Shown here: positions 2,515 through 64,000 of the stretch, piece by piece
Layout: every line of letters begins with the position of its first letter
Numbering within the stretch: position 1 is the first letter of the stretch
Assembly (NCBI GenBank): GCA_030710605.1
Contig: CP092865.1
Location: 27,034,947 to 27,098,946, forward strand
Length of the DNA: 64,000 nucleotides
Reading direction: 5' to 3'
From: Cordylochernes scorpioides
Lineage: Eukaryota; Arthropoda; Arachnida; Pseudoscorpiones; Chernetidae
The notes under the pieces: model-generated
Told to the model about the DNA's origin: nothing
What the model saw: the letters and a program-made list of their open reading frames with translations, nothing else
Database searches by the model: none
Position numbers and translations under genes: made by a program

Positions 2515-2700
2515 GAGAGCGCCAACAGCGCGTTCGTGGATGGCTTTATTTATCAAGTAATTGGGTTGGCCAAATATCAGGGAACAAGTTAAATAAACGT
2601 TTAGTTTATTTTTCCTCCACTAGATGGCGCTCTGCCATTTAAAAAACACATGTGCTTTTGGTCAGGATATGCCTTCATTATTTTTGAAATATACTTTATA
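2515..2700 (+). repeat. Family T repeat (GATGGCGCTCTGCCAT motif)
   Basis: It shares a long block with copies at 24175-24312 and 56715-56885: a TTTATCAAG run, GGTTGGCCAAATAT, the self-complementary AAACGTTTAGTTTATTTTT stretch and the ATGGCGCTCTGCCAT motif. It belongs to a family that often occurs as inverted pairs. The family is unidentified, perhaps PLE-related 3' ends. Confidence 0.6.
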
Positions 2701-2940
2701 TTCAGAAACAAAGTAGGCCCACTACCCATATATATCCTGATACCAACACCTGACTTTTTATTATGTTTCATTATTTTAAATATTATTATTGTCAGATACT
2801 TTATAATGTAAAGAGACAAGGGTCGCCTCTCCCGTCAAAATAGACGTCTAAAACCAGACGCCATCTATTGACCGTCGCCGCAACTAGCGGCCTCGGGTCG
2901 GTGACAAAGCCACAACAACAGCTTTGGCAAACTGAAAAGC

Positions 2941-2995
2941 ATCCACTTGGAGACCATGGTTTCGGGCTAATGGCCCTCGTCAGTCTAGGGCGGAC
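2941..2995 (-). ncRNA. Hammerhead ribozyme copy in RZ-1 left arm (stem I mutated)
   Basis: Read on the minus strand it has CTGACGA, the stem II pair GGGC/GCCC around loop CATTA, GAAA, and the short stem III ACCATGGT followed by C at the cleavage site. After the cleavage site it reads TCCAAGTGGAT where the intact copies read TCTAGGTGGAC, so stem I pairing is broken at several positions. The catalytic core is intact but cleavage is doubtful. Confidence 0.7.
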
Positions 2996-3251
2996 TTTAT
3001 TCCATGAGATCCACACGGAATCTAATGGAATCTTGACAATCTTCAAAGAGGTGTTTAGCTGGCAAAGTGACTGGGCCATATCTATAGCTAGAATTAAGAT
3101 GGAAATTTTGCCGGGAGGAAATTGATCTAAAGAGACATGATTTCCATTTATATTCTAGCTATAGATATGGCCCAGTCACTTTGCCAGCTAAAAGCCTCTT
3201 CGTCAGATTGTCAAGATTCCATTAGATCCCGTGTGGATCTCATGGAATAAA

Positions 3252-3306
3252 GTCCGCCCTAGACTGACGAGGGCCATTAGCCCGAAACCATGGTCTCTAG
3301 GTGGAC
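3252..3306 (+). ncRNA. Type I hammerhead ribozyme, intact
   Basis: All parts are present in order. The stem I 5' strand is GTCC-GC-CCTAGA (3252-3263) and the core is CTGACGA (3264-3270). Stem II GGGC/GCCC closes loop CATTA (3271-3283). GAAA is at 3284-3287. Stem III is minimal (ACC/GGT or AC/GT around CATG), and the cleavage site follows C3295. The stem I 3' strand is TCTAGG-T-GGAC (3296-3306). Stem I therefore has 6 perfect inner pairs, a small GC/T internal loop and 4 outer pairs; such loops typically contact loop II and speed cleavage. A minimal stem III is typical of retrozyme and PLE hammerheads, which act best as dimers. Confidence 0.88.
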
Positions 3307-3532
3307 GCTTTTCAGTTTTCCAAAGCTGGTGCTGTGGCTTTGTCACCGACCCGAGGCCGCTAGTTGCGGCGACGGTCAATAGATAGCGTCTGGTTTTAGA
3401 CGTCTATTTTGACGGGAGAGGCGACCCTGGTCTCTATAGATCAATTTCCTCCCGGCAAAATTTCCAACTTTATAATGTGTAAAAAAAAAGAAAAAGTAAG
3501 AAAAATAGGAAAGTTTCAGGTAGTAATATAAA

Positions 3533-3660
3533 AAAGGCATATCCTGGCCGTTTTAAAGAGCATTTTGAATGTCAGAGCGCCATTTAGTTGATATTTATTC
3601 CAATAGATGGCGCTCTGCCATCTAAAATGCTCATTTAAGCGGTCAGGATATGTCTTTTTT
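3533..3660. repeat. Family T palindrome
   Basis: The arms at 3533-3583 and 3607-3660 are inverted copies: AGGCATATCCTGGCCG with AGAGCGCCAT on the left, ATGGCGCTCT with GGTCAGGATATG on the right. The spacer is TTAGTTGATATTTATTCCAATAG-like. This is the same family as 2515-2700. Confidence 0.65.
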
Positions 3661-3669
3661 CATACTTTA

Positions 3670-4157
3670 TAAAGCTTTATAAAATAAAATAAACTTTGTA
3701 AAAATTGAATACATAGGTTGAGAGATACATTTATAGGAAAGTATTTCTAAATAGGAACACATCATGTGATGGTAGTTGTAATAGAGACATATCGGGAGAA
3801 CAAGAAGGGACCATTGAATCTCTGCCAACACTCGGCCAACAGCCAAATTGATGGACTTCCAAATAATATCAGGATTTTTTAACTTTGCGATGATCGAGGG
3901 AAATCTATAGATATTAATAGAATAACCTTGTCCCTCTTATATAGCGTGGGTATATGGAATATAAGACGTTAAGTTCTCCTAACAATCCCTTCCATAAATG
4001 TCTTAAAAACCTTCTAAAGACACAAAAATAATATAAATTATTTTTATTACAATAATAAAGAAACAATTTTCTTGTAGGGAATTTTAGTATGCGCATTTAA
4101 TTTCTAAAAAAAGTAAAGTAACATACCACGTCCAAAAATATGCAAAACTCTAAGTAT
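3670..4157. other. AT-rich DNA, nothing recognised
   Basis: No repeat match or coding motif seen. Confidence 0.4.
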
Positions 4158-4162
4158 TATAT

Positions 4163-4350
4163 TGTAACAAAGTAAATATTAATTTTTATTATTTTTATTA
4201 ACAGAGTGGTCATTTTTATGATTATATTTTGCTACTCTGTAAATTTCCCTCGTGGCTTATCTTTTGTTTACCATTCATAGTTGGTCCTTCCCTGAAATAA
4301 ATTGTTGTCTTCTCCTGAAGTTTTTGTCTTCCCTAATTTTCCACGTGGCA
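4163..4350 (+). repeat. 5' LTR of the TRIM-like element
   Basis: 188 bp, TG...CA ends. The internal ACAGAGTGGTCATTT and TGCTACTCTGTAAAT segments are partly inverted copies and could fold. Confidence 0.72.
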
Positions 4351-4353
4351 TTT

Positions 4354-4371
4354 TGGTGGAGATGCCGGGGA
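4354..4371 (+). promoter_or_regulatory. Candidate primer-binding site
   Basis: TGGTGGAGATGCCGGGGA starts 3 nt after the 5' LTR. Its complement would be a tRNA 3' end reading CCCCGGCATCTCCACCA, which resembles the T arm plus acceptor end of a tRNA-Ala. The tRNA identity is inferred from general tRNA knowledge. Confidence 0.65.
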
Positions 4372-4681
4372 AGTTAGGGAAGACAAACTGAAGATCGCCG
4401 AGAAGACCTTGAAGCCATGGGTGCTGTGATCTACATTTTCGGAGACTGACTCCAGGATTCCACCGCCGTGCTAAAGCCAAGACTGCCCTCGAAGATGATG
4501 ATGTCCCTATAGACGATACGACGACAAAGCCGCTCTTCACGCCGCAAGAAAAAGGACGCAAAGGTACTAGGGACAAAGTTCCAAGACTTCGATGGAATCC
4601 TTGGAAGAAGCACGTCAGATCCATGTCAGTATCTTCAATAATTGCTAGCTGTGGGTCACAGCTCCCATAGGGAAGAAGCTA

Positions 4682-4862
4682 TGTAACAAAGTAATTTTTA
4701 ATTTTTATTATTTTTATTAACAGAGTGGTCATTTTTAAATTATATTTTGCTACTCTGTAAATTTCCCTCGTGGCTTATCTTTTGTTTACCATCCTTAGTT
4801 TGTCCTTCCCTGAAATAAATTGTTGTCCCCTCCTGAAGTTTTTGTCTTCCCTCCACGTGGCA
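4682..4862 (+). repeat. 3' LTR of the TRIM-like element
   Basis: 181 bp, same ends as the 5' copy, with small indels and substitutions between the two (for example the CTAATTTT segment before the CACGTGG end is missing). The insertion is therefore not recent. Confidence 0.72.
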
Positions 4863-4874
4863 ATATGATACATT

Positions 4875-5030
4875 AGCATGTCATCTGTTATGAGAATTTG
4901 AAACTATTATAGACGCGTACGATTCTTTTTTAAAATTTAAACAATTTTCTACTGCCCTTAATGCAATGAAAAATTAATGGGAAGGCCTGGCTCATCAGTG
5001 ATGAATCATTAGTATATTTGGAATTTTTAA
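4875..5030. repeat. Family S repeat, partial
   Basis: It contains GAAACTATTATAGACGCG, TTTCTACTGCCCTTA and GGCCTGGCTCATCAGTGATG, the hallmark blocks of the most abundant repeat in the window (full copy at 53460-53755). Confidence 0.7.
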
Positions 5031-5034
5031 GAAA

Positions 5035-5175
5035 TAGAGCGTAGTGCTCCCAGTCTTTATGACAAAGGCAGACGCATTCTACTTCACCCACTCATCCATT
5101 GATGAACTCTACTCTTCCCCGGCAGACACCATCAAAAGTCTCAAGCTTCACAAGCTTGATACCCTGATATGATTG
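5035..5175 (-). repeat. Family V repeat fragment
   Basis: This is an inverted match to copies at 44140-44520 and 52440-52805, with GTGCTCCCAGTCTTTATGAC and CAAGCTTGATACCCTGATA-type blocks. The family is probably retrotransposon-derived but not identified. Confidence 0.6.
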
Positions 5176-5468
5176 AGTGAAGATAAGAAAGAAGAAGAAA
5201 TAGAGCGGTTTTATTGTACTTTCTGTCTATGATGATTAAATCGATCAAATATTGTGTGTCAATATATAACAATATTGTAGAGACGTGGTGGTCTAAACAT
5301 GCGATGAATGGAGGATAGACTATCTGACATCGCTGGAGTGACATCTACCGTTATCTCAGCGTCACTCCCTCCGTGTCTCTCCTCAGGACTGTCTCGTCCC
5401 TCTCACCATGAAGAAAAGTATCTCTGGTAGGTTCTTTCTTTTCCACTTCTATTGGTTTCTTAGAGGAC

Positions 5469-6062
5469 TCTATAAAATAAAGGTCATCTCTCTCGTCAGA
5501 TTAGATGTCAAAACTAAACGCCATCTATTGACCGTCGCCGCAAACTAGCGGTCTCGGGTCGGTGACAAAGCCACAACACCAGCTTTGGCTAATGGCCCTC
5601 CTCAGTCCAGGTGTCACCGACCCGAAGCCGCTAGTTTGCGGCGACGGACAATAGATGGCGTCTAGTTTTGACATCTATTTAGACGGGAGATCTGACTTTT
5701 ATTTTTATTGATCAATATCCTCCCGGAAAAATTTCCATCTATATTTTGGCCATAGATTTGGCCTAGCCACTTTGCCAATTAAGCAGTTCTTTGGCAAGAT
5801 TATGAATATTCCATTGAATCTCTTGTGGATCTCACGGTATAAAGCCTGCTCTGGACTGAGGAGGGCCATTAGCCCGAAATCATGGCCTCTAGGTGGACAC
5901 GTCTCAGTTTGCCAAAGCTGGTATTGTGGCTCTGTCACCGACCTGAGGTCGCTAGTTTGAGGCGACGGTCAATAGATGACGTCTAGTTTTGACGTCTATT
6001 CTTAGGGGATTGGTGACTTGTATTTTTATAGATCAATAACCTCCCGGCAAAATTTTCATCCA
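5469..6062 (+). mobile_element. RZ-2: degenerate retrozyme-like element with head-to-tail units
   Basis: A short inverted RZ fragment (about 5480-5605) is followed on the plus strand by the last part of one unit (5606-5709), then a complete unit, then the beginning of a third. The unit boundary GATCAAT...CCTCCCGG occurs at 5710 and at 6031, giving a tandem period of about 321 bp. TAGAGGAC at 5461-5468 and 6063-6070 may be an 8-bp target-site duplication. The copy is older than RZ-1 and RZ-3 and carries many substitutions. Confidence 0.65.
5844..5898 (+). ncRNA. Decayed hammerhead ribozyme in RZ-2
   Basis: CTGAGGA (position 7 may vary), stem II GGGC/GCCC with CATTA loop and GAAA are kept. Stem III reads ATCATGGCC, so the required A15.1-U16.1 pair is lost, and stem I has mismatches. 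It is probably inactive. Confidence 0.65.
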
Positions 6063-6070
6063 TAGAGGAC

Positions 6071-6660
6071 GTTAGGGAATTGATATTCCGCATTTCAATG
6101 TTGTGGGAGGTCATCCAACCGAATTACAATGTAATCTGGTTAAGTTCGACCCTATATGCCGTTTCACCAGCTAAAATGTCTTTTTTGCCTGATTCGACCG
6201 ATCTCATAACTTCTCTATTTGGAGGTTATGAAGTCGAACCCCGAGCTCCTCCTTTTATCCAGACTTCTTTGATTCGAAAGGACACAAAAGTTGAACCCAT
6301 AGGACACTTCATAGGAACTACCACAAAATATTCTTTTGGAAGATCACCTCCTGACCACTCCCTATTAAATCAAACATTCTTCAAAGAAGCCACAAACTAC
6401 TTTGTTGGAATAGTAAGGCAAATAACAAAGCCTATTATTAATTGAACTTGGTTAGTCATCAATTAACTAGTTCCCAGGGAAATTAAATAGAGCTCCGAGT
6501 TCTATTTAAACATAAAACTTTATATGTTTTCTTGTTTTGTTAAACACGGGTTGTTCTACATTAGAGAGATTCACACAACCGTCTGATATCTGTTACATCA
6601 AGATATATGAATCTTCATACAATATATTATTGTTACATACAATATATTCTGAATATAGAG
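6071..6660. other. Unassigned DNA with a 121-codon open frame
   Basis: A plus-strand frame at 6080-6445 runs 121 codons with mixed composition (RAPPFIQTSLIRKDTKVEP in the middle). I recognise no family, signal peptide or motif, and a chance frame cannot be excluded. The rest is AT-rich. Confidence 0.25.
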
Positions 6661-6666
6661 CAATCA

Positions 6667-6910
6667 ATAGTATATGTATATTTTAAAAAATAAGGCTTAT
6701 TTTGGATTGTAATAATATTATTTATTAATCCGATATTTCGATGGACCAATCTTCCATCTTTTGCCGTCAAGCACGTAGCAGGTCGCGTGCCCCAGGTGAG
6801 CCACCAGACGTCTTCCAAGCTGGAAGATTGGTCCATCGAAATATCGGATTAATAAATAATCTTATTACAATCCAAAATAAGCCTTATTTTTTAAAATATA
6901 CATATACTAT
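6667..6910. repeat. Large palindrome, 90-bp arms
   Basis: Arms 6667-6756 and 6821-6910 are near-perfect reverse complements around a 64-bp GC-richer centre. On the plus strand the right arm reads TGGAAGATTGGTCCATCGAAATATCGG in two adjoining motifs, resembling a decayed hammerhead/PLE terminus (GAAATATCGG). It codes for nothing. Confidence 0.75.
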
Positions 6911-6929
6911 TCTCTATCCGCCAGTGTTA

Positions 6930-7440
6930 CATCAGTGGTCAGCACACAGAGCTTGGATTCCTCAATTAGGTTATTAAAAGAACAGATTGGGAAGTGGTGT
7001 GTAATTCCAAGAGTATTCTTAAATGGTAGTGTGTGTATGCCGCTCTGTATGCTGACGATGGTAATAACTATATCTTATATAAACTTATCAATATCTTATG
7101 ATATCATTTTTGTATCGTTATGCTCAATATTCATAGCGTCAATTATATTTTATATATATTTTATAAATTATTATATATGGTATCAAAATTATTCGAATAT
7201 TTATAGCTAGGTTGTGTAGTTTCAACTTTTAGAGTTTATTAAAGACATATTTCACATATATGTTTTCGTTAAATTGTAAAGCAGCATATTTTTAAATAAC
7301 AGGCGTTCTAAAATAAGGACAACTTGAATGAATTATTGTAATTGATTCTAGGAACTCCTATACAGTATCTATCCCTCCTACTGGAAAGTTGTCTCAGGAG
7401 TGAAATAGCGTTCAGCTAATGGCCAATTTCCACATTGGCC
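6930..7440. other. AT-rich DNA, nothing recognised
   Basis: A plus-strand frame at 6935-7210 is hydrophobic only because of AT-rich codons (I, Y, F, S). I do not support it as a gene. Confidence 0.4.
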
Positions 7441-7460
7441 CTCCTGATATTTACATTTTA

Positions 7461-7588
7461 AGAAAATTCGAAACTATTATAGACACGTATGATTCTTTTA
7501 AAAATTAAACAATTTCAAATTAAAGAATCATACGCGTCTATAATAGTTTCGAATTTTCATAACAGATGGCGCGCTAATGTATCATACT
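7461..7588. repeat. Family S terminal hairpin copy
   Basis: AATTCGAAACTATTATAGAC at the left is mirrored by GTCTATAATAGTTTCGAATT at the right, followed by CATAACAGATGGCGCGCTAA. The internal part of the repeat is deleted, leaving a MITE-like hairpin; compare 38745-38895 and 59500-59662. Confidence 0.75.
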
Positions 7589-7833
7589 TATATATGTTGA
7601 GTATATTGAATATGTTGATAAAATCAATAAGGTCTAAGTTTCTTGTACAATGTCATTTCTCTAGCTTCCTGACTAACATGCCCTTCAAACAGGAGCAACT
7701 CGGAGTATAACTTCTAGCTTACTCCACACGCCAGAAAAAGACTTTACCTTCACACAACGGCACACGCCAGAAAAATATAAATGATTGAAAATATGTAAAC
7801 CAGATAAATTTTAGCACACATATAAATAGATAT

Positions 7834-8187
7834 AGATGGACATTTTGCCGGGAGGATATTGATCTAAAGAGACAAAGGTCGCCTCTAAATTTCCATCTAT
7901 ATTTTAGCCATAGATTTGGCCCAGCCACTTTGCCAGCTAAACACCTCTTTGGCAGATTGTCAAGATTCCATTAGATCCCGTGTGGATCTCATGGAATAAA
8001 GTCCGCCCTAGACTGACGAGGGCCATTAGCCCGAAACCATGGTCTCTAGGTGGACGCTTTTCAGTTTGCCAAAGCTGGTGTTGTTGCTTTGTCACCGACC
8101 CGAGGCCGCTAGTTTGCGGCGACGGTCAATAGATGGCGTCTAGTTTTGACGTCTATTTTGACGGGAGAGGCGACCTTTGTCTCTTTA
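7834..8187 (+). mobile_element. RZ-3: retrozyme-like element with perfect 13-bp target-site duplication
   Basis: A 354-bp insertion flanked by TATAAATAGATAT at 7821-7833 and 8188-8200. The first 53 bp are an inverted piece covering the end of one unit and the start of the next. The remainder is a plus-strand unit ending GTCTCTTTAT. An intact hammerhead ribozyme lies at 8001-8055. The head-to-head layout is the same as RZ-1 with a much shorter inverted arm. It is non-coding and the best preserved copy in the window. Confidence 0.78.
8001..8055 (+). ncRNA. Type I hammerhead ribozyme, intact
   Basis: Identical to the 3252-3306 ribozyme: stem I GTCC-GC-CCTAGA with TCTAGG-T-GGAC, core CTGACGA (8013-8019), stem II GGGC/GCCC with CATTA, GAAA (8033-8036), minimal stem III, cleavage after C8044. 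Confidence 0.88.
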
Positions 8188-8209
8188 TATAAATAGATAT
8201 TTGATTTTC

Positions 8210-21168: not shown

Positions 21169-21241
21169 ATTAACCTAACCTAACCTGAACCTAACCTAAC
21201 CTAACCTAACCTAAAGCTAACTTAAACTAACCTAACCTAAA
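21169..21241. repeat. CCTAA/TTAGG telomere-like repeats
   Basis: About a dozen CCTAA units, five of them in an unbroken head-to-tail run and the rest with small changes. TTAGG is the usual arthropod telomere repeat, so this is an interstitial telomere-like tract. It lies inside a transposon rather than at a chromosome end. Confidence 0.8.
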
Positions 21242-23329: not shown

Positions 23330-24174
23330 TTGCTCTCCTTTTTACCATTTCTATCATTCGACAAAGTTTATGGATTATCTATTTAGATGTCAAGTTTCGT
23401 TTTTTTTTCTTGTGTCGCATTTGAAGTTGCAGATTTCTTCTTGAAGGTAATTTTACTTGTTTTTCAGATTTTTCATAAAACTGAACGCTGTGGGTATATA
23501 TCATGTATTCATTACAATTTATATTCGCGATAAGATGATGCTCTATATCATCATTATAAAACAAATGATAAAAGACAAATAGCATCCTTCCAGAATTTAC
23601 CTAGAGAGAAGCTGAAGTACTTAGATGTCACCAGACCAACATTAGCTGGTCCAGTACACCTGAAAGAAGTTGATAACACACAAGCCGTTGGCTAATTCCA
23701 AGTCATTAGACTGTCGATTGTCCTACAAGACGCTGAGTCACGTCAGACAGTAGCTCTTTGACATCGCTTCGTTCCCACACAACTTCCAATATCTCTTTGT
23801 TGACATTATGGACAGAGAACATTCTAGTTCTCATATCTTGGGGTTTGAGATTCCTTTTAGAAACATTTTACAACATTTATATATATTTAGAAAATATGCA
23901 TACATATATGTCTTGATTGAATGGAAGGGTGCAACCGTTATAAAGACAATCTTCAATAATACGATCCAGCCAAGTGAGCAGCGCGACGTGCCGTAGCATT
24001 CGTCCGCGATGTCTGCCACGTTTATTTTTGTACAGTTTTTATAGATGGATGAATTTGTATTTTACATTTTAACACAAGCTTAACATATTTACATACTTAT
24101 TTTGTGTGGCGATAAGAAATTATACATCTTGATATTATACAAATTATGACATATATATGTTATATTAAAAATAA
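23330..24174. other. Unassigned DNA
   Basis: Short frames on both strands without recognisable motifs; no repeat match seen. Confidence 0.35.
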
Positions 24175-24312
24175 ATAAGGCATCTCCTGACCACGAGCAC
24201 ATGTGCTTTTTAGATGGCAGAGCGCCATCTAGTGGAGCAAAAATAAACTAAACGTTTATTTAGCTTTGCTCCGTGATATTTGACCAACCCAATTTCTTGA
24301 CAAATCAAGTTT
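24175..24312 (-). repeat. Family T repeat
   Basis: ATGGCAGAGCGCCATCTAGT, the AAACGTTTATTTAGCTTTGC region and GACCAACCCAATTTCTTGA match 56715-56885 directly and 2515-2700 in inverse orientation. Confidence 0.68.
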
Positions 24313-24537
24313 AACATGTTATATTAAAATATTATTTTATTTAAAATTATATTTCATAGATTCACATACTCTGCTAAATCGACCGCCAGAGGTCACGCTT
24401 CCCCTATAAAAACTCATTGCTGTTGTTTCTCGATGGCTGGCTCAAATCTTTTGTACATTATGTAAATATGTTTTTAATTTAAGTAGAACTGCTCTTCACT
24501 GAAAGTTAATAACGAGTTTACAAAGTGGGAAGAGGAG

Positions 24538-24600
24538 CTTCTTTTTATTAGCATGAACATAAGCTTTCGGACACATCGTCCTTCATCAGATAAGAGTAAT
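24538..24600 (-). ncRNA. Hammerhead ribozyme in the inverted PLE copy
   Basis: Same sequence as 28007-28069 on the minus strand: CTGATGA complement at 24583-24589, GAAA complement at 24565-24568, predicted cleavage after the base paired with T24549. Confidence 0.82.
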
Positions 24601-24805
24601 AAACGCGCTGAGGATCCATATATACACAAAGCTGAAAAGAAAATTTACATAACTGCAAAAGATAAAAGTATTTAAAGATAAAAATAAAAATAAGAACCAA
24701 ATATGCTAAAAAAGAGATTATAGGGATTAAATGCTAATAAATCTGGACTAAGTACATATGCACTATGAATGGTGTTAATCAAGGGCAGGCAAATGCAACC
24801 TAAGG

Positions 24806-26738
24806 CTATTCACATAACATATGGTATTGTTCTGGTATATCTATATGCCTGTTGATGCTGTTTGTTTTTATTGACACAAATGCCTCTAGTAAAAGTCTTT
24901 GGTACTTATTATTGATATTGCTGTATAGAATGGATGGCTTTGATAGATTGAATGTATGACCGGTTTGTATAGAATGACTGTAAATAGGGGAATTTAGGTT
25001 TTTATTAGAGACGTTTCTGGAATGCTCAACCATTCTGATGGCGACGGATCTACCCGTCTCCCCGACATAAGTGGCATTACATTGGTCGCAAGAGACGGAA
25101 TAGACAGCACCACCAGAACGGAGAGCACTCGCATGAAGGGAAGATCTGGTAATGGGGTGTCGGATTAGTGTGGCGATGTTAGGTGGGTTCTGGAAGTATG
25201 TTGTAATGCCATGGTGCCTTAAAAACCTGGCTATGGTGATAGACTGGGGGCAAAAAGGGAGGGAGCAAATATTTCTGTGTATAGCTGGAGCACTGTTGTG
25301 GTGAGGGTCATGCATGTGTTTAAGAATGAAGGGGGTCGGGTAGCCGGATTTGGATAAATATGAAAATATTTTAGCCTTTTCTATTGTTTGGAATAACGGG
25401 AGGGAACAATGAGTAAAGATACGTTTAGTGAGAGCTCTAACTGTATTGATTTTGTGTGATGTTGGGCAATGTGATCGGAAGTTTGTGTGGTGTGGGGGTG
25501 TGTTGTTTTTATAGTATACTGTGGTATGGAAACTGCTGGGGGTGCGTATGACTAGTGTATCTAGGAATGGTAGGACTGAGTGATTTTCTGTTTCATGGGT
25601 GAAGGCTATGTCTGGGTGGAAGGAGTTGAGGTCAGATAGGATGTGAGAGGCAGATACCTCACTTACCAAGCAAAAGGTATCATCGATGTACCGCCTCCAT
25701 AGAAAGATGTCTGAAGAATGGCGTGAAGTGATCCATTGGTCTAGTGACCTCATGACAACCTCAGCCACCACGGTTGAGAGGGGGCTACCCATGGGGGAGC
25801 CCTTGGTCTGCTTGAAAAACTGGGTATCAAATGTGAAGGTGGACATGCCTAGGCATATGGAAGTGAGCTCGACAACCGTCTCCGCGGTGAGGGTGTCTAA
25901 CAGGGGGGCATTTTCGAGGAAAGTGCGTAAACTATTAATGATCAAGGGGTGGGCAAGTGAGAGATATAGAGACGTTACATCGAAAGAAACCATTATGGAC
26001 CTGGGGGGAGGTGTGAGGCTGGTGATATAGGACACAAACGAGGGGGAGTTTGCAATGGTATATTCCCATGGGGGAGACTGTAGAAGGGGGGTCAAGAAGT
26101 TGGACAAAAATTTTGACAGGGTATATGCCGGAGAGAGATGGTAAGATATGATTGGTCGGAGGGGAACATCGGGCTTGTGGATCTTTGGAAGGCCGTAAAT
26201 GTAGGCTATTTGGGCGAGGTTAGCTGTGAAGTCGTTATATTGCTCTTTAGTGATCTGCTGAGACCTTTTTAATCTTAACAATAGCAAACGGAAATTCTTA
26301 ACGGATGTTTTATGATCCTGTTCAGTGATGGCAGAAAAAATGGAGTGTTGGTCGAGAACGTTTTGCATTTTTTGCTTGTAAACTGTGGTGCTGAGAATTA
26401 CGGTTTGTGAGCCTTTATCGGATTTTGTTATGACTATGTCTCTATTGCGTTTAAGACGGGAGATAACCCTGTTCATGGCTAGGGACGGTTTAGGGATATT
26501 GTAGGGTCGTTGAAGGGTGGAGGTGACAAAATGTCTGATCCTATGGGTGTCTTGGTGGTTAAGGCCTCTGAGAGCGGGTTCTACACCAGCTAAGATGCGA
26601 GGAATATCAGAAGGCCCAGGCAGTCTGTATTTTAGGCCCAATGCCAGAATCTCAGCATCAGCAGATGGCAAGACATAGTCCGAGAGGTTGACCACTCCTT
26701 GGGGTGACTGGGGAAGATGGGCTTCTACTAGATAGGCA
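24806..26738 (-). CDS. PLE reverse transcriptase/GIY-YIG protein, N-terminally truncated inverted copy
   Basis: The frame is open from the inversion junction (reading AYLVEAHLPQS) to TAG at 24806-24808, about 644 codons. It matches residues from about 138 to the end of the full-length protein at 28166-30511 with no difference I can see. It retains the DKG, FDVTSLY, GSPMGSPLS and YIDD reverse transcriptase motifs and the YSVSC...YVGETGR endonuclease. It lacks the N-terminus and any promoter-proximal sequence, so it is probably not expressed as such; a GTG or downstream ATG start is all that is available. It arose in the same event as its neighbours. Confidence 0.88.
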
Positions 26739-26740
26739 GC

Positions 26741-27801
26741 TCACTTCCATATGCCTAGGCATGTCCACCTTCACATTTGATACCCAGTTTTTCAAGCAGA
26801 CCAAGGGCTCCCCCATGGGTAGCCCCCTCTCAACCGTGGTGGCTGAGGTTGTCATGAGGTCACTAGACCAATGGATCACTTCACGCCATTCTTCAGACAT
26901 CTTTCTATGGAGGCGGTACATCGATGATACCTTTTGCTTGGTAAGTGAGGTATCTGCCTCTCACATCCTATCTGACCTCAACTCCTTCCACCCAGACATA
27001 GCCTTCACCCATGAAACAGAAAATCACTCAGTCCTACCATTCCTAGATACACTAGTCATACGCACCCCCAGCAGTTTCCATACCACAGTATACTATAAAA
27101 ACAACACACCCCCACACCACACAAACTTCCGATCACATTGCCCAACATCACACAAAATCAATACAGTTAGAGCTCTCACTAAACGTATCTTTACTCATTG
27201 TTCCCTCCCGTTATTCCAAACAATAGAAAAGGCTAAAATATTTTCATATTTATCCAAATCCGGCTACCCGACCCCCTTCATTCTTAAACACATGCATGAC
27301 CCTCACCACAACAGTGCTCCAGCTATACACAGAAATATTTGCTCCCTCCCTTTTTGCCCCCAGTCTATCACCATAGCCAGGTTTTTAAGGCACCATGGCA
27401 TTACAACATACTTCCAGAACCCACCTAACATCGCCACACTAATCCGACACCCCATTACCAGATCTTCCCTTCATGCGAGTGCTCTCCGTTCTGGTGGTGC
27501 TGTCTATTCCGTCTCTTGCGACCAATGTAATGCCACTTATGTCGGGGAGACGGGTAGATCCGTCGCCATCAGAATGGTTGAGCATTCCAGAAACGTCTCT
27601 AATAAAAACCTAAATTCCCCTATTTACAGTCATTCTATACAAACCGGTCATACATTCAATCTATCAAAGCCATCCATTCTATACAGCAATATCAATAATA
27701 AGTACCAAAGACTTTTACTAGAGGCATTTGTGTCAATAAAAACAAACAGCATCAACAGGCATATAGATATACCAGAACAATACCATATGTTATGTGAATA
27801 G
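26741..27801 (+). CDS. PLE protein, C-terminal 353 residues
   Basis: The frame enters at the inversion junction and starts TSICLGMSTFTF in the reverse transcriptase. It carries GSPMGSPLS, YIDD and the GIY-YIG endonuclease and stops at TAG 27799-27801. An in-frame ATG at 26704 gives a chance start whose first 12 codons are antisense of the inverted copy. It is missing the N-terminal half of the polymerase, so it is not functional alone. Confidence 0.85.
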
Positions 27802-28006
27802 CCTTAGGTTGCATTTGCCTGCCCTTGATTAACACCATTCATAGTGCATATGTACTTAGTCCAGATTTATTAGCATTTAATCCCTATAATCTCTTTTTTA
27901 GCATATTTGGTTCTTATTTTTATTTTTATCTTTAAATACTTTTATCTTTTGCAGTTATGTAAATTTTCTTTTCAGCTTTGTGTATATATGGATCCTCAGC
28001 GCGTTT

Positions 28007-28069
28007 ATTACTCTTATCTGATGAAGGACGATGTGTCCGAAAGCTTATGTTCATGCTAATAAAAAGAAG
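28007..28069 (+). ncRNA. Hammerhead ribozyme in the PLE pseudo-LTR
   Basis: Core CTGATGA (28018-28024); stem II GGAC/GTCC around GATGT with one extra A (28025) at its base; GAAA (28039-28042); stem III AGC/GCT (28042-28044 with 28055-28057) closing a 10-nt loop; cleavage after A28058. Stem I starts with TTAT/ATAA and continues after an internal loop with weaker pairs. PLEs are known to carry hammerheads in their pseudo-LTRs, so position and sequence agree. The extra A in stem II may reduce activity or be tolerated. Confidence 0.85.
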
Positions 28070-28165
28070 CTCCTCTTCCCACTTTGTAAACTCGTTATTA
28101 ACTTTCAGTGAAGAGCAGTTCTACTTAATTCGCTCATTTTTACGCTTTTTATCCTGGAATTCATC

Positions 28166-30511
28166 ATGAATCCTTCCGCTGAAGACCTACCTCGTTATAC
28201 CTATCAGTTACGAAAGAAATCGTTACAGTTGTCAAGATGGCGCCTCCATTTGAAGTTTAACAAACTGTGTGAAACGGCTGATTTTATACCTCCATCCCTG
28301 CGAATCAGGGATCCTGTTCGCAATCCATTTTCATCCGTCGTCATACGCCGCGCCCAACTCCACCTGTTATCGTCTAGAATCAAAGGTTGCCATTCCAATA
28401 TCCGATTTATTTCTAAGTCCGTCAAGGGATTGATCTTTCTGGTCTCTCAGCTACTAACCAATCCAGAAATGGCCGATCTGTTGCAATCCATCACAAGGGA
28501 CATTCGGCTCCAGAAGAACGATATAACGCAACGTCACAACTCCAAGCTTCATCACTGGATCAAGAAGTACAACTTCCCTGCCTATCTAGTAGAAGCCCAT
28601 CTTCCCCAGTCACCCCAAGGAGTGGTCAACCTCTCGGACTATGTCTTGCCATCTGCTGATGCTGAGATTCTGGCATTGGGCCTAAAATACAGACTGCCTG
28701 GGCCTTCTGATATTCCTCGCATCTTAGCTGGTGTAGAACCCGCTCTCAGAGGCCTTAACCACCAAGACACCCATAGGATCAGACATTTTGTCACCTCCAC
28801 CCTTCAACGACCCTACAATATCCCTAAACCGTCCCTAGCCATGAACAGGGTTATCTCCCGTCTTAAACGCAATAGAGACATAGTCATAACAAAATCCGAT
28901 AAAGGCTCACAAACCGTAATTCTCAGCACCACAGTTTACAAGCAAAAAATGCAAAACGTTCTCGACCAACACTCCATTTTTTCTGCCATCACTGAACAGG
29001 ATCATAAAACATCCGTTAAGAATTTCCGTTTGCTATTGTTAAGATTAAAAAGGTCTCAGCAGATCACTAAAGAGCAATATAACGACTTCACAGCTAACCT
29101 CGCCCAAATAGCCTACATTTACGGCCTTCCAAAGATCCACAAGCCCGATGTTCCCCTCCGACCAATCATATCTTACCATCTCTCTCCGGCATATACCCTG
29201 TCAAAATTTTTGTCCAACTTCTTGACCCCCCTTCTACAGTCTCCCCCATGGGAATATACCATTGCAAACTCCCCCTCGTTTGTGTCCTATATCACCAGCC
29301 TCACACCTCCCCCCAGGTCCATAATGGTTTCTTTCGATGTAACGTCTCTATATCTCTCACTTGCCCACCCCTTGATCATTAATAGTTTACGCACTTTCCT
29401 CGAAAATGCCCCCCTGTTAGACACCCTCACCGCGGAGACGGTTGTCGAGCTCACTTCCATATGCCTAGGCATGTCCACCTTCACATTTGATACCCAGTTT
29501 TTCAAGCAGACCAAGGGCTCCCCCATGGGTAGCCCCCTCTCAACCGTGGTGGCTGAGGTTGTCATGAGGTCACTAGACCAATGGATCACTTCACGCCATT
29601 CTTCAGACATCTTTCTATGGAGGCGGTACATCGATGATACCTTTTGCTTGGTAAGTGAGGTATCTGCCTCTCACATCCTATCTGACCTCAACTCCTTCCA
29701 CCCAGACATAGCCTTCACCCATGAAACAGAAAATCACTCAGTCCTACCATTCCTAGATACACTAGTCATACGCACCCCCAGCAGTTTCCATACCACAGTA
29801 TACTATAAAAACAACACACCCCCACACCACACAAACTTCCGATCACATTGCCCAACATCACACAAAATCAATACAGTTAGAGCTCTCACTAAACGTATCT
29901 TTACTCATTGTTCCCTCCCGTTATTCCAAACAATAGAAAAGGCTAAAATATTTTCATATTTATCCAAATCCGGCTACCCGACCCCCTTCATTCTTAAACA
30001 CATGCATGACCCTCACCACAACAGTGCTCCAGCTATACACAGAAATATTTGCTCCCTCCCTTTTTGCCCCCAGTCTATCACCATAGCCAGGTTTTTAAGG
30101 CACCATGGCATTACAACATACTTCCAGAACCCACCTAACATCGCCACACTAATCCGACACCCCATTACCAGATCTTCCCTTCATGCGAGTGCTCTCCGTT
30201 CTGGTGGTGCTGTCTATTCCGTCTCTTGCGACCAATGTAATGCCACTTATGTCGGGGAGACGGGTAGATCCGTCGCCATCAGAATGGTTGAGCATTCCAG
30301 AAACGTCTCTAATAAAAACCTAAATTCCCCTATTTACAGTCATTCTATACAAACCGGTCATACATTCAATCTATCAAAGCCATCCATTCTATACAGCAAT
30401 ATCAATAATAAGTACCAAAGACTTTTACTAGAGGCATTTGTGTCAATAAAAACAAACAGCATCAACAGGCATATAGATATACCAGAACAATACCATATGT
30501 TATGTGAATAG
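28166..30511 (+). CDS. Full-length Penelope-like reverse transcriptase with GIY-YIG endonuclease
   Basis: 781 codons from ATG 28166 to TAG 30509-30511. An in-frame stop at 28109-28111 makes this the first ATG. A basic N-terminal region (residues 1-140, RLHLKFNKLCETADFIPPSL) precedes the PLE signature ITKSDKG (about 240-246). Then follow YGLPKIHKPDVPLRPI, FDVTSLY (about 388, first catalytic Asp), KGSPMGSPLS (about 450) and RRYIDDTF (about 486, second Asp pair). After a His/Cys-rich linker the GIY-YIG nuclease reads AVYSVSC then YVGETGRS (683-700), with IRMVEH supplying the catalytic Arg and RLLLEAF the likely Glu. The enzyme would nick target DNA and reverse-transcribe PLE RNA in the nucleus. 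Length and order are normal for an endonuclease-bearing PLE, and no stop or frameshift is present, so the copy may be active. Confidence 0.93.
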   Translation: MNPSAEDLPRYTYQLRKKSLQLSRWRLHLKFNKLCETADFIPPSLRIRDPVRNPFSSVVIRRAQLHLLSSRIKGCHSNIRFISKSVKGLIFLVSQLLTNPEMADLLQSITRDIRLQKNDITQRHNSKLHHWIKKYNFPAYLVEAHLPQSPQGVVNLSDYVLPSADAEILALGLKYRLPGPSDIPRILAGVEPALRGLNHQDTHRIRHFVTSTLQRPYNIPKPSLAMNRVISRLKRNRDIVITKSDKGSQTVILSTTVYKQKMQNVLDQHSIFSAITEQDHKTSVKNFRLLLLRLKRSQQITKEQYNDFTANLAQIAYIYGLPKIHKPDVPLRPIISYHLSPAYTLSKFLSNFLTPLLQSPPWEYTIANSPSFVSYITSLTPPPRSIMVSFDVTSLYLSLAHPLIINSLRTFLENAPLLDTLTAETVVELTSICLGMSTFTFDTQFFKQTKGSPMGSPLSTVVAEVVMRSLDQWITSRHSSDIFLWRRYIDDTFCLVSEVSASHILSDLNSFHPDIAFTHETENHSVLPFLDTLVIRTPSSFHTTVYYKNNTPPHHTNFRSHCPTSHKINTVRALTKRIFTHCSLPLFQTIEKAKIFSYLSKSGYPTPFILKHMHDPHHNSAPAIHRNICSLPFCPQSITIARFLRHHGITTYFQNPPNIATLIRHPITRSSLHASALRSGGAVYSVSCDQCNATYVGETGRSVAIRMVEHSRNVSNKNLNSPIYSHSIQTGHTFNLSKPSILYSNINNKYQRLLLEAFVSIKTNSINRHIDIPEQYHMLCE

Positions 30512-30810
30512 CCTTAGGTTGCATTTGCCTGCCCTTGATTAACACCATTCATAGTGCATATGTACTTAGTCCAGATTTATTAGCATTTAATCCCTATAAT
30601 CTCTTTTTTAGCATATTTGGTTCTTATTTTTATTTTTATCTTTAAATACTTTTATCTTTTGCAGTTATGTAAATTTTCTTTTCAGCTTTGTGTATATATG
30701 GATCCTCAGCGCGTTTATTACTCTTATCTGATGAAGGACGATGTGTCCGAAAGCTTATGTTCATGCTAATAAAAAGAAGCTCCTCTTCCCACTTTGTAAA
30801 CTCGTTATTA
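29450..30810 (+). repeat. 3' copy of the PLE pseudo-LTR region
   Basis: Matches 26740-28100 at a fixed offset of 2710. It contains the C-terminal coding part, about 300 bp of 3' non-coding sequence, the hammerhead and the terminal CTCGTTATTA. Confidence 0.88.
30717..30779 (+). ncRNA. Hammerhead ribozyme at the 3' end of the full PLE
   Basis: Same sequence as 28007-28069: CTGATGA 30728-30734, GAAA 30749-30752, cleavage after A30768. With the upstream copy it could release a 2710-nt monomer from a read-through transcript. Confidence 0.85.
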
Positions 30811-31018
30811 TGTTTTTAATTTTTTAGATTTTTACGCCTTAAGCCAGGCAGTACATTTATCAAATTATGTTTTTATAAATTACTTTAGATCAATTAAAGC
30901 AATTACTGATCAAAACAATTTTTATTATTATATTTTCAAGATTTTAACCTCGACTTCGACTACATTACCATAGCATAATCCTCAAGATAATCAACAGAAA
31001 TCTCTTATTTATAATATA

Positions 31019-33420: not shown

Positions 33421-33980
33421 TATTATTCCCTTTACAACGCAGGATGATACAACACGCTGGTTTAAAATTTGATTCAAACTATATATTGGCGATTATTTTC
33501 TCAATGATGGCTAATCCATCTCTTCCTCATGGCTGTTAAATCCTGGTATACCCGCTCACCTCTCCCACGGCCACCTCTCGACTTACACGTTAAAGGTGAC
33601 GTCGCTGCAGTGAAGTAGATTGAAACAAAGGTTGGACACCATCTGCCAGCTGTCAGGAGATCTTGCCAGGACGAGCTGTTGACAGTTGTATAGTACCGCG
33701 GCTTATCTTCATTCCCTCCAAACTTGTACTTTTTCTATTAGTTTAATCTCTCTTTCTATTTAACTTTGAGCCCCCAATGTTGTAGGTGAGTAACTGCCCC
33801 TTTTAAATTGATTTTATAAAAATATGGCACTCTAGAGAATTCGGCGTTTGACCGTCAGGTTGTGTAATTTGGTAATTGCCGAAATTCTGTTCGGTTGTAT
33901 GCGAAGAAAATAAATCAATGGCGTTTAGGTGTAACGTCTATTTTGACGTGAGAGAGACTTTTATTTTCTAAATTCTAATT
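33421..33980. other. Unassigned DNA
   Basis: A short RZ-like piece (GGCGT...AACGTCTATTTTGACG) lies at about 33919-33965. Nothing else recognised. Confidence 0.35.
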
Positions 33981-43127: not shown

Positions 43128-43129
43128 AC

Positions 43130-44139: not shown

Positions 44140-44520
44140 TTTTTCTTCTCTTCTTCTTTCTTATCTCCACATATTTATATTAAGGTATCAAGCTTGTAAA
44201 GCTTGAAACCATCATGACTAGGTGAAGTATAATGCGTCTGCCTTTGTCATTAAGACTGGGAGCACTACTCAGTGGCAGGCCGACTTAGCTCCAAAAGAAA
44301 TGTCCACCTCTGACATGAGGAACAGACGCCATGTGCAGCCGCTCCTAACACGGAGTATAAACGCTGCTCATCCTGTATCCCTGGATTAGGAACCCCTACA
44401 GGGTACTATCAGCCGGGCCAGCTGAACCCAGTTTTTTTAGTGAGCTTGTTACTGCTCCCCCTCCTTCTTTTTCATCCGGGCTTGGGACCGGCAAAGGCGG
44501 AGTTTCAAAAACTACACATT
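44140..44520 (+). repeat. Family V repeat
   Basis: A long match to 52440-52805: TATCAAGCTTGTA, AAGACTGGGAGCACTACTCA, CATGTGCAGCCGCTCCTAAC, CATCCTGTATCCCTGGAT and TTCATCCGGGCTTGGGACC. Its blocks and end resemble retrotransposon-derived sequence; no frame is kept. Confidence 0.68.
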
Positions 44521-48900: not shown

Positions 48901-48903
48901 TTT

Positions 48904-52805: not shown

Positions 52806-52854
52806 TAGTTACATATCTGCAAATAATGCATGAGAATCTCCTGATCGCGCGAAA

Positions 52855-54173: not shown

Positions 54174-54311
54174 AGATGGAAATTTTGCCAGGAGGAAATT
54201 GATCTATAAAGATCACCCTTCTCTCCAAAATAGACGTCAAAGCTAGACGCCATCTATTGACACTCGCCGCAAACTAGAGGTTTCGGGTCGGTGACAAAAC
54301 CACAACACCAG
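54174..54311 (-). mobile_element. RZ-4: truncated retrozyme-like fragment
   Basis: On the minus strand it covers the last third of an RZ unit (GTCACCGACCCGAAACCTC through GACGTCTATTTTGGAGAG) and then reads through the junction (GATCAATTTCCTCCTGGC) into the next unit. The hammerhead part is absent. Confidence 0.65.
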
Positions 54312-54362
54312 TTGACGTCATCAGGTGACCTTTATCTTTAAAAATAATCTAAGTTCATTGCC

Positions 54363-62134: not shown

Positions 62135-62698
62135 ATGGCTCCCTCTAGGAAGAAAAAGAAGAATGCCGAGAAGCCCCTCGTGACCCTCGCCCAACTTGAG
62201 TTGGAGAATGAGGAGGTGATGGACGACTCCGCGAAGGCATTAATGCAACCTCACCCTACCGCCCAACATCACCTGTCCCAAATCATTGCGGGTCTCATCA
62301 ATCTGCGGACCGAGCAGATCAAGGCCCTCATTGCCGAGGTAGAGAACCTCTCTGGCACCCTCGCGTCCTTTAAGGAACTGGACGAAATCAAGCCACAGAC
62401 TGCCTGCCAATCCACTCAAACAAGCCCAGCTCCTTCCTGCAAGGAAACCAGCTCCGTGACCGACCCCACCAAGCCCGCCACTCCGGCTCCAACCAAAAGG
62501 AAGCAGCCAGAGGCTCCCTACCCGCCCGCAAAAAGGACCAACTTCAAAGGTCCCGCAAAACCTGCGCCCACCCGCGTCCCCAAGCCTGCGGCCGCCCAAG
62601 TGGTCCTCCATGGGGATAGGAGGCCTTTAACTGATTTTGTAAGGATGCGAATGTGTGAAAAGCAACCTTTAGTGCGGGCTCGTAGTAGCTTAAAATGA
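62135..62698 (+). CDS. ORF1-like protein of a retroelement, interrupted by a PLE insertion
   Basis: ATG at 62135 sits in a good eukaryotic start context (GCCATGG). The first residues MAPSRKKKKNAEK are basic. Residues 15-75 (LAQLELENEEV, LINLRTEQIKALIAEVENL) form a likely coiled coil, and 85-155 is a Lys/Pro/Ala-rich stretch (KPAPTRVPKPAAA). Coiled coil plus basic low-complexity tail is the layout of many retroelement ORF1 proteins, but I do not recognise a family. Codon use is GC-rich, unlike the surroundings. From about codon 160 (after AAQVVLHGDRR) the frame is antisense of PLE sequence, so the real C-terminus was cut off near 62610 by the neighbouring insertion; the stop at 62698 is accidental. 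Confidence 0.5.
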   Translation: MAPSRKKKKNAEKPLVTLAQLELENEEVMDDSAKALMQPHPTAQHHLSQIIAGLINLRTEQIKALIAEVENLSGTLASFKELDEIKPQTACQSTQTSPAPSCKETSSVTDPTKPATPAPTKRKQPEAPYPPAKRTNFKGPAKPAPTRVPKPAAAQVVLHGDRRPLTDFVRMRMCEKQPLVRARSSLK

Positions 62699-62814
62699 GT
62701 TTCTGTGATGATTTTGGCAGAGTAGTGATTGCCGATCGGATCTTTCATACGCAAAGATGGAGGAATGAATCCTTGATTTACGCATATTTTGTTAAAGGCA
62801 AGATGCTTCTTCAA
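62612..62814 (-). pseudogene. Inverted N-terminal segment of the third PLE
   Basis: The minus strand reads KKHLAFNKICVNQGFIPPSL, RMKDPIGNHYSAKIIT, LLRARTKGCFSHIRILTKSV then KGLL. It matches residues about 26-90 of the full-length PLE protein (HLKFNKLCETADFIPPSLRI through SKSVKGLI). It is the missing upstream part of the frame that starts at 62815 in the opposite orientation. The two overlap by about a dozen residues (ILTKSVKxLL). Confidence 0.82.
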
Positions 62815-64000
62815 GATGCATCCTCACAAAATCAGTTAAAAGCCTCCTATTTCACCTGTCCATGCATTTAACAGATCAAGACATGGCTGATTTTCTTAGA
62901 AGAATCACAGAAAACATCAAAAAGCAAGATATTACCATTACAGCTAGACATAATAAGAAACTAACACATTGGTCCAAAAAATATAACTTCAAACTCGCAC
63001 CGAACAATGCCCTACAAACAATAGTGAATCTCTCTAGTTTCCAGCCTACCACAGAGCATATAAACATATTATCTAAAGGACTTAAATATAGACTTCAAGC
63101 CAAAGCTGATGCCATAACAATCATAGCAGGGGTAGAATCGTCCATTTTCCGCTTAAATCATCAAGAGAAGTTTAGAATCAGACAGCACACCGCAGCAGTC
63201 CTTAGCGACCACAACCAAACCCAACATACCTACCAAATCAACAAAAATGTATTGCGCTCACTAACAACGAACAAAGATATAACCATCACCAAATCTGATA
63301 AAGGATCGCTTACAGTCATCATGAACACAGCCGAATACATTTCCAAGATGGACACAATCCTTGTTGATCCGCTCACGTTTACCCCCATATCCATAGATGA
63401 TCAGAATACCGCAACCTCTTCTTTTAAAAAAGAAATCAACAATCTGCTGAGGAAGAAAATCATTAGCTCCGAAGAATGCAAAAATATTTTGTCCAATATA
63501 ATGTCAAAAGCTTATATTTACGGCCTACCTAAATTACACAAAGAAGGTATCCCACTAAGACCCATCATCGCGTACCACCTCTCCCCTGCAGCTCCGTTAG
63601 CAACTTATCTAGCCAAAATACTGGCCCCGATGCTCAGAGATAGTGACTCCCCGACGACCATTTCCTCCATTCCTGTCTTCATAGGTAAGTTACAACAAAC
63701 AGCAGTTACACCTGGTACCATCATGGTCTCATTTGATGTTGTTAATTTATATCCCAGTCTCCCCCACCAGCTTATTTTAGACTGCACCACAGAATTTCTA
63801 ATTGAACAAGGTTGCCCCACAGACACCATTTCCAAACTCATTGCACTTATCAAAATCAGTCTTTGCCATAGTATTTTCAAATTCAACCAATCTTACTTCA
63901 AACAGACCAAAGGCACCCCTATGAGTAGCGCATTATCCTCTCCCCTTTCAGAAATAGTGATGCGCAAGATAGATAAACGTATAGTTAATATCTTCCCTAA
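62815..64000 (+). CDS. Penelope-like reverse transcriptase, third family, continues past the window
   Basis: Open from a stop at 62793 to the window end without interruption. It starts CILTKSVKSLLFHLS, then MADFLRRITENIKKQ, ITKSDKGSLTVIM (PLE signature), YIYGLPKLHKEGIPLRPII, FDVVNLYPSLP (first catalytic Asp) and FKQTKGTPMSSALSSPL. The order matches residues about 80-470 of the 28166-30511 protein at moderate similarity, so this is a separate family. GTPMSS replaces the usual GTPMGS. The YIDD motif and the GIY-YIG domain would lie beyond 64000. It lacks its own N-terminus because that part is inverted upstream, so this copy is defective unless ATG 62862 suffices. Confidence 0.88.

What the first reader, a model, noticed from the sequence alone, without database searches (positions are those of the whole stretch)
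7834..8187. Small mobile element carrying a complete type I hammerhead ribozyme and a perfect 13-bp target-site duplication
RZ-3 is non-coding, 354 bp, bounded by TATAAATAGATAT on both sides, and contains every base and stem required for a type I hammerhead with a 6+4 bp stem I. RZ-1 (2810-3466) has the same ribozyme and a perfect 12-bp duplication. Hammerhead-bearing non-autonomous retroelements (retrozymes) are known in plants and some animals. The family seen here, with no coding capacity and an inverted arm, may be undescribed.
Basis: partly seen in the sequence, partly recalled or inferred. Interest (0 to 1): 0.85.

Follow-up and report, generated by a model that had tools for sequence, protein, structure and literature searches.

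The report
Tiny ribozyme-carrying jumping element (retrozyme)
This is a short non-coding jumping element of an animal genome that carries a predicted self-cutting RNA; the way its copies end suggests that it is moved by the enzymes of Penelope-type elements, one of which lies in the same stretch of DNA.

Summary
RZ-3 (7834-8187) has every core base and stem of a type I hammerhead (cleavage C8044|T8045) and a perfect 13-14 bp target-site duplication. A full hammerhead descriptor has two hits in the window and none in 200 shuffles. Against it, Rfam does not call it (best 12.5 bits) and the lowest-energy monomer fold is not the active one; the palindromic stem III fits a ribozyme acting as a dimer.

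RZ-1, RZ-2 and RZ-3 are pieces of one circularly permuted unit of 319-321 nt, matching published metazoan non-LTR retrozymes: the kind is known.

The added result is the ends. In the three copies with definable flanks (of five found) both outer ends are the RNA's 3' side, head-to-head, at two fixed positions 29-35 nt apart. This is the 'tail' signature of Penelope-like elements, whose enzyme starts at two adjacent internal sites and extends both DNA strands (PMC11167929). A young Penelope-like element in the window (24481-30809) shows the same anatomy. The papers I read propose such helpers only from shared ribozymes, tandem copies and co-existence. Cleavage, circles and helper remain inferred.

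The parts
7834..8187 (+). RZ-3, the element of the finding (end 8186 or 8187, one base ambiguous with the duplication)
   Evidence: homology with RZ-1/RZ-2 and flanking duplication
7820..7833 (.). left target-site duplication ATATAAATAGATAT of RZ-3
8187..8200 (.). right target-site duplication of RZ-3
7834..7886 (-). RZ-3 inverted arm: begins at end position B (with tail), 53 nt
7887..8187 (+). RZ-3 forward arm: unit 163 round to end position A (no tail), 301 nt
8001..8055 (+). type I hammerhead ribozyme motif, predicted cleavage between C8044 and T8045
8036..8043 (+). palindromic stem III ACCATGGT, allows a dimeric ribozyme
   Evidence: dimer fold
2810..3466 (.). RZ-1: inverted arm 2810-3139 (end A, no tail) and forward arm 3140-3466 (end B, tail), each one lap of the unit plus 7-8 nt
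2798..2809 (.). RZ-1 left duplication ACTTTATAATGT (right copy 3467-3478)
3252..3306 (+). RZ-1 forward hammerhead, identical to that of RZ-3
2941..2995 (-). RZ-1 inverted-arm hammerhead, core intact, stem I damaged
5473..6062 (.). RZ-2, older copy: inverted partial arm (end A), forward arm of 1.4 units through a tandem junction at about 5729, ending at B; hammerhead core 5856 lost U16.1. Its two end positions rest on an imperfect duplication
   Evidence: duplication TAGAGGACTCTA 5461-5472 / TAGAGGACGTTA 6063-6074 (10 of 12) read by eye, not tested against chance; ends counted on from the alignment
54174..54339 (-). RZ-4, diverged partial copy with a B end; the short inverted A end (54324-54339) was read by eye and not recovered by alignment; no clear duplication
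33918..33966 (+). RZ-5, 5'-truncated fragment ending near position A (aligned to unit 125; the last bases by eye); no clear duplication
24481..30809 (+). candidate helper: young Penelope-like element; inverted arm 24481-26739 (with 27-29 nt tail), forward partial unit about 26740-28100, full unit 28101-30809 (no tail)
24468..24480 (.). left duplication ATGTTTTTAATTT of the Penelope-like element (right copy 30810-30822)
28112..30511 (+). open frame of 799 codons, reverse transcriptase plus weak GIY-YIG match
30728..30756 (+). minimal hammerhead-like motif of the Penelope-like element with one extra A after the core (also 28018-28046 + and 24561-24589 -)
   Evidence: no Rfam hammerhead match; single-strand fold shows stem II but not the rest of a hammerhead
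62617..63983 (+). second, diverged Penelope-like element (42% amino-acid identity), cut off by the window end

Best explanation
RZ-3 is an insertion of an animal non-LTR retrozyme whose genomic unit is a ring-like 320-nt sequence. Tandem copies are transcribed; the type I hammerhead cuts the RNA at C8044|U8045, probably as a dimer through the palindromic stem III; a host ligase closes the monomers into circles. A Penelope-type reverse transcriptase with GIY-YIG nuclease nicks both strands of an AT-rich target about 12-14 bp apart and primes DNA synthesis from both broken ends, at either of two internal sites (A, unit about 140-143; B, about 171-175). The two copies grow toward each other and are joined, giving a head-to-head insert whose outer ends are both 3' ends, here one with and one without the 'tail', flanked by a duplication. 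Shown here: the anatomy, the period, the ends, the duplications and a Penelope-like element with the same end anatomy. Inferred: cleavage, circles, dimer action, and which enzyme acts.
For: Hammerhead descriptor 2 hits versus 0 in 200 shuffles. Circular permutation: period 320 (RZ-1 forward), 319 (RZ-1 inverted arm), 321 (RZ-2), and arms that read through the unit junction. Ends: one A and one B in each of the 3 copies with definable flanks, RZ-1, RZ-2 and RZ-3 (of 5 copies found); tail 29, about 35 and 32 nt. The Penelope-like element has the same layout with a 27-29 nt tail at one end only and a 13-bp perfect duplication. PMC11167929 (parts 1-2 of 4 read): a PLE enzyme cuts and extends both strands, starts inside the RNA at two adjacent sites, and the stretch between them is the genomic tail. 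PMC3846280 (passages and Discussion): 31-bp tail optionally at one of two inverted pLTRs, head-to-head most frequent, cargo moved in trans between pLTRs. Circle fold -105.4 versus -85.7 +/- 4.9 kcal/mol, z -4.0, 0 of 100 shuffles as low.
Against: No sequence similarity between the retrozyme ends and the ends of the window's Penelope-like element, so this particular element is not shown to be the helper. Only three copies from one window have definable flanks, and RZ-2's rest on a 10-of-12 match. One A and one B in each of three copies has a 1 in 8 chance if each end chose freely between the two, so the pairing itself proves little; PMC11167929 saw no difference in start site between the strands. 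Rfam does not recognise the ribozyme; the lowest-energy monomer fold is inactive, and the predicted circle also shows the competing pairing. Unit GC 49.1% is at the upper edge of what was reported for animal retrozymes. RZ-2's B-started arm runs 1.4 laps, so copying does not always stop after one lap. In the PLE tested in vitro the hammerhead cut only with protein present, its mutants still inserted, and RNA-seq showed no reads beginning or ending at the cut site (PMC11167929), so ribozyme action may not be needed for movement.
Confidence: 0.77

Rival explanations
1. A retrozyme moved by a LINE: ordinary target-primed reverse transcription, with the inversions produced by twin priming.
For: Long duplications are also typical of LINEs; PMC4918200 (passages) likened 15-bp duplications of sea-anemone repeats to LINE movement, and PMC7229834 names LINEs beside PLEs as possible helpers. 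A LINE-type C-terminal fragment is suggested by eye at 41025-41579, though Pfam finds no family there.
Against: Twin priming (recalled) puts the outer end of the inverted part at a variable internal position; here the outer ends on both sides fall at the same two 3' positions in the 3 copies with definable flanks. By eye, no poly(A) or simple-repeat 3' end.
Confidence: 0.1
2. A foldback or MITE-type DNA transposon that happens to carry a hammerhead-like sequence.
For: Long inverted arms (2806-3042 and 3205-3441, 95% complementary); no coding capacity.
Against: The two ends of one copy are not the same terminal sequence (they differ by the 29-35 nt tail), duplications vary (12, 13-14 bp), RZ-2 holds 1.4 head-to-tail units, and unit ends are circularly permuted relative to each other.
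Confidence: 0.05
3. Not a retrozyme but a solo or internally deleted pLTR of an unseen Penelope family whose own hammerhead it carries.
For: Same end anatomy, tail and duplications as a Penelope-like element; PLE pLTRs carry type I hammerheads (PMC7761336 passages).
Against: The unit closes on itself at about 320 nt in the junctions seen with no long open frame; the hammerhead has a stem III and a two-part stem I, unlike the minimal PLE type. The line between the two is thin: a retrozyme may descend from a pLTR.
Confidence: 0.15
4. Chance resemblance to a hammerhead in an ordinary repeat.
For: Rfam score near background; stem III is only 2-3 bp in the monomer.
Against: 0 hits in 200 shuffles, and the carrier has the size, layout and duplications of published retrozymes.
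Confidence: 0.03

Closest known systems
Metazoan non-LTR retrozymes (Cervera and de la Pena 2020, PMC7229834)
   Same: Type I hammerhead with a short stem III (readable as 2 bp with a palindromic CAUG tetraloop; axolotl ones have 1 or 2 bp with a tetraloop), unit of 170-400 nt, non-coding, long duplications, strongly self-paired predicted circle, co-existing Penelope-like elements.
   Different: Published ones are described as tandem repeats; here copies are head-to-head insertions with two fixed end positions. The main-text parts and passages I read do not mention tails or inverted arms on retrozymes; supplements were not seen.
Penelope-like elements (Poseidon of Anolis, PMC11167929; Adineta Penelope, PMC3846280)
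   Same: Head-to-head inverted arms, optional tail of about 30 bp at one end, tandem or partial-tandem units, AT-rich targets, duplications, a hammerhead upstream of the RT start sites (Anolis).
   Different: RZ has no reverse transcriptase or nuclease and is only 320 nt per unit.
Plant LTR retrozymes (PMC4918200)
   Same: Non-coding, hammerhead-bearing, with circular RNA intermediates (circles not shown for RZ).
   Different: Those have type III hammerheads, LTRs, primer-binding site and 4-bp duplications.

Membership tests
metazoan non-LTR retrozyme | type I hammerhead with complete core | tested here: met
   descriptor; sequence; but no Rfam match at gathering score
metazoan non-LTR retrozyme | unit of about 170-400 nt found in more than one lap (tandem) | tested here: met
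   319-321 nt; RZ-1 inverted arm 1.02 units, RZ-2 forward arm 1.4 units; no longer array of it seen in the window
metazoan non-LTR retrozyme | no coding capacity | tested here: met
   no frame of 150 codons or more overlaps 2810-8187; shorter frames not examined; the unit itself is only 320 nt
metazoan non-LTR retrozyme | low GC (below 45-50%) | tested here: inconclusive
   49.1%
metazoan non-LTR retrozyme | duplications longer than 4 bp | tested here: met
   12 and 13-14 bp, perfect, in RZ-1 and RZ-3; 10 of 12 in RZ-2 by eye
metazoan non-LTR retrozyme | no LTR, primer-binding site or polypurine tract | not tested
   no scan was made
metazoan non-LTR retrozyme | self-cleavage and circular RNA in tissue | not testable with these tools
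   needs RNA
Penelope-like element | open frame with RT and GIY-YIG nuclease | tested here: not met
   RZ is non-coding. The neighbouring 28112-30511 frame has RVT_1 E 1.7e-7; GIY-YIG appears only with the C-terminal 199 residues, E 0.065, below the cut-off
mobilised by Penelope machinery (works like) | head-to-head arms with outer ends at two adjacent 3' positions about 30 nt apart | tested here: met
   3 of 3 copies with definable flanks (RZ-2's by an imperfect duplication), of 5 found; RZ-4 has B by alignment and A by eye, RZ-5 one end only
mobilised by Penelope machinery (works like) | shared recognition sequence with a resident Penelope-like element | tested here: not met
   no similarity to the one intact element in the window; other families in the genome could not be searched
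plant LTR retrozyme | type III hammerhead and 4-bp duplication | tested here: not met
   type I topology; 12-14 bp
foldback or MITE DNA transposon | identical terminal inverted repeats, constant duplication length | tested here: not met
   ends differ by the tail; 12 versus 13-14 bp
Rfam hammerhead families | score at or above the gathering cut-off | tested here: not met

The most novel reading that the evidence does not exclude
The insertions record Penelope-type reverse transcriptase copying small ribozyme-made RNA circles from both broken DNA ends. In RZ-1 each arm is one lap of the 320-nt circle plus 7-8 nt (one started at A, one at B). In RZ-3 the A-started arm (301 nt) and the B-started arm (53 nt) together cover one circle once, with overlaps of about 21 nt at A and 12 nt at B, as if both copies were made on the same circle and each stopped near the other's start. 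This would settle which enzyme moves animal retrozymes and show the circle to be the direct template.
Probability: 0.4. Interest if true: 0.75.

Novelty: new variant of a known kind. Interest (0 to 1): 0.55.

Why it matters
How non-coding animal retrozymes get back into the genome is unsettled. The papers seen here name Penelope-like elements (beside LINEs) as candidates because of shared type I ribozymes, tandem arrangement and co-existence. End anatomy gives a direct, genome-scale test: if retrozyme copies in many animals carry the two-position tail and head-to-head arms, the helper is a Penelope enzyme and the cis-signal lies around the A-B stretch. I saw no report of this in seven literature searches, whose listings were partly cut short and whose library lacks most subscription papers.

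Tried and rejected
Rfam over the whole window at gathering score: no match. At E up to 10, 36 matches, mostly microRNA models on palindromes (for example MIR8622 on the RZ-2 inverted arm), which I treat as artefacts of inverted repeats; no hammerhead among them. Rfam on the 81-nt ribozyme stretch: 12.5 bits only. Rfam on the Penelope-like element's end: no hammerhead; its single-strand fold is no better than shuffles (150 of 200 fold at least as well).

Search of the window's own genome: none held. Exact ribozyme pattern in viral and bacterial/archaeal collections: 0 matches each, as expected for an animal element. Relatives of the Penelope-like protein in viral contigs: 6 pattern matches, none confirmed. 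Solved structures by sequence: 4 weak matches (E 0.012-0.014), three of them reverse transcriptases.

Divergence of the two RZ-1 arms as a sign of two different template RNAs: inconclusive. They differ at 17 of 291 aligned sites; sites private to one arm are balanced (9 and 8), and 7 variants are shared by both arms against RZ-3, so later mutation explains it equally well. A first chance estimate for duplications was inflated by tandem arrays and replaced, which masks them. Conservation of the ribozyme against the rest of the unit was looked at by eye only and is not informative with so few copies. The 7-base core CTGANGA alone is commoner in the window (68) than in shuffles (24 on average), so only the full descriptor counts. 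Whether the common start of forward arms in RZ-1 and RZ-3 (unit 165 and 163) is a transcript start rather than an end of lap could not be decided.

Full report
What is there. A descriptor of the complete type I motif (core, stem II of at least 4 bp, stem III of at least 2 bp, U16.1, H17, stem I of at least 5 bp) has 2 hits in the 64 kb, RZ-1 forward and RZ-3, and none in 200 dinucleotide shuffles, although the 7-base core alone occurs 68 times (24 per shuffle on average). A relaxed scan also finds the degenerate RZ-2 copy (5856), the inverted RZ-1 copy (2983, minus), the three motifs of the Penelope-like element and one unrelated site (61067, minus).

Results against the ribozyme. The best monomer fold is a competitor (-22.2 kcal/mol; hammerhead fold -14.9). 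Two copies of the RNA are predicted to pair through an 8-bp palindromic stem III, 7.2 kcal/mol better than two monomers. PMC7229834 (parts 1-4 of 6 read) reports a like case for axolotl: stem III of one or two base pairs with a tetraloop, weak as a monomer, efficient as a dimer. RZ-2 has lost U16.1 and would not be expected to cut; the inverted ribozyme of RZ-1 has damaged stem I.

The unit. Aligned to one another, the arms of RZ-1, RZ-2 and RZ-3 are pieces of a unit that closes on itself: 320 nt in RZ-1 forward, 319 in its inverted arm, 321 in RZ-2, with read-through of the junction in RZ-1 (inverted arm, 327-328 nt) and RZ-2 (447 nt, 1.4 units). The predicted circle is more stable than 100 of 100 shuffles (z -4.0), though the core is partly in the competing pairing. 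The three long arms of RZ-1 and RZ-3 and the forward arm of RZ-2 run past the cleavage site, so their templates were uncut or re-closed there. Size, type I hammerhead, lack of coding and long duplications fit the animal retrozymes of PMC7229834; PMC4918200 (passages) already draws a putative one from a tick and mentions 15-bp duplications in a sea anemone.

The ends. Removing the duplications, the outer ends of the three copies with definable flanks fall at two positions of the unit: A at about 140-143 (RZ-1 left, RZ-2 left, RZ-3 right) and B at about 171-175 (RZ-1 right, RZ-2 right, RZ-3 left). RZ-2's flanks rest on a 10-of-12 duplication read by eye, and its ends were counted on from the alignment. 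Each of the three has one A and one B, both pointing outwards as RNA 3' sides, so the inserts are head-to-head; three mixed pairs in a row have a 1 in 8 chance if each end chooses freely, so the mixing itself is weak evidence. The stretch between A and B is 29 (RZ-1), about 35 (RZ-2) and 32 nt (RZ-3). Of the two remaining copies, RZ-5 ends near A and RZ-4 has a B end; RZ-4's A end is by eye only, and neither has a clear duplication. RZ-3 is then simple to read: a 53-nt inverted arm started at B and a 301-nt forward arm started at A.

The Penelope link. The same window holds a young Penelope-like element: a frame of 799 codons with RVT_1 (E 1.7e-7) and a sub-threshold GIY-YIG match seen only with the C-terminal part alone, arms identical over 2233 and 1391 bp, a 13-bp perfect duplication, an inverted left arm with a 27-29 nt tail and a right end without it. 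It carries a minimal hammerhead-like motif with one extra A, not recognised by Rfam. This layout is the one described for Penelope in rotifers (31-bp tail optionally at one of the inverted pLTRs, 8-10 bp duplications where present, head-to-head most frequent; PMC3846280 passages and Discussion). PMC11167929 (parts 1-2 of 4) explains the tail: the enzyme cuts and extends both strands and starts inside the RNA at two adjacent sites, and the tail is the stretch between them. The retrozyme copies show the same signature. PMC7229834, PMC7761336 (passages) and PMC11722881 (passages) propose Penelope-like elements as helpers on grounds of shared ribozymes, tandem copies and co-existence; I saw no mention of tails or inverted arms on retrozymes in what I read, and none in the listings, some of which show only the top 15-25 papers.

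What is not shown. There is no sequence similarity between the retrozyme and this Penelope-like element, so the helper may be another family; a second, diverged Penelope-like element is cut by the window end. The 'one lap plus 7-8 nt' length of both RZ-1 arms and the complementary cover of one circle by the two RZ-3 arms suggest circular templates, but RZ-2's 1.4-lap arm shows that this is not a rule. In the one PLE studied in vitro, ribozyme mutants still inserted.

Verdict. The valuable part lies in the ends, which turn a conjecture about animal retrozymes into a testable statement.

Noticed in passing
window 44149-44509 (-), 52448-52811 (-), 5041-5198 (+): A repeat of about 360 bp with a twister-P1-like ribozyme at its 5' end: 39.4 bits, E 1.3e-7 and 29.6 bits, E 8.2e-5, both below the gathering score of 67.2; the two copies are 82% identical, the third is a 3' part without the ribozyme. 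It may belong to what PMC7761336 mentions as truncated twister ribozymes at the 5' end of RTE retrotransposons (passage); RTE origin was not tested. So one window may hold two kinds of ribozyme-bearing small elements.
   Followed up: partly
window 62617-63983: Second Penelope-like element, 42% identical in protein to the first, with a short inverted N-terminal piece before it; runs off the window.
   Followed up: partly
window 6666-6911: Near-perfect foldback: 95-nt arms, 98% complementary, 56 nt apart.
   Followed up: no
window 21171-21241: Array of about 14 TAACC units (TTAGG-type telomere repeat), which hints at an arthropod host; recalled association, not tested.
   Followed up: no
window 2544-2701, 3583-3660, 24153-24309, 56735-56830: Copies of another short repeat family containing AGATGGCGCTCTGCCAT or its reverse complement in at least some copies.
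   Followed up: no
window 41544-43128, 48903-49363, 51047-52168: Minisatellite arrays with 32-, 56- and 123-bp units.
   Followed up: no
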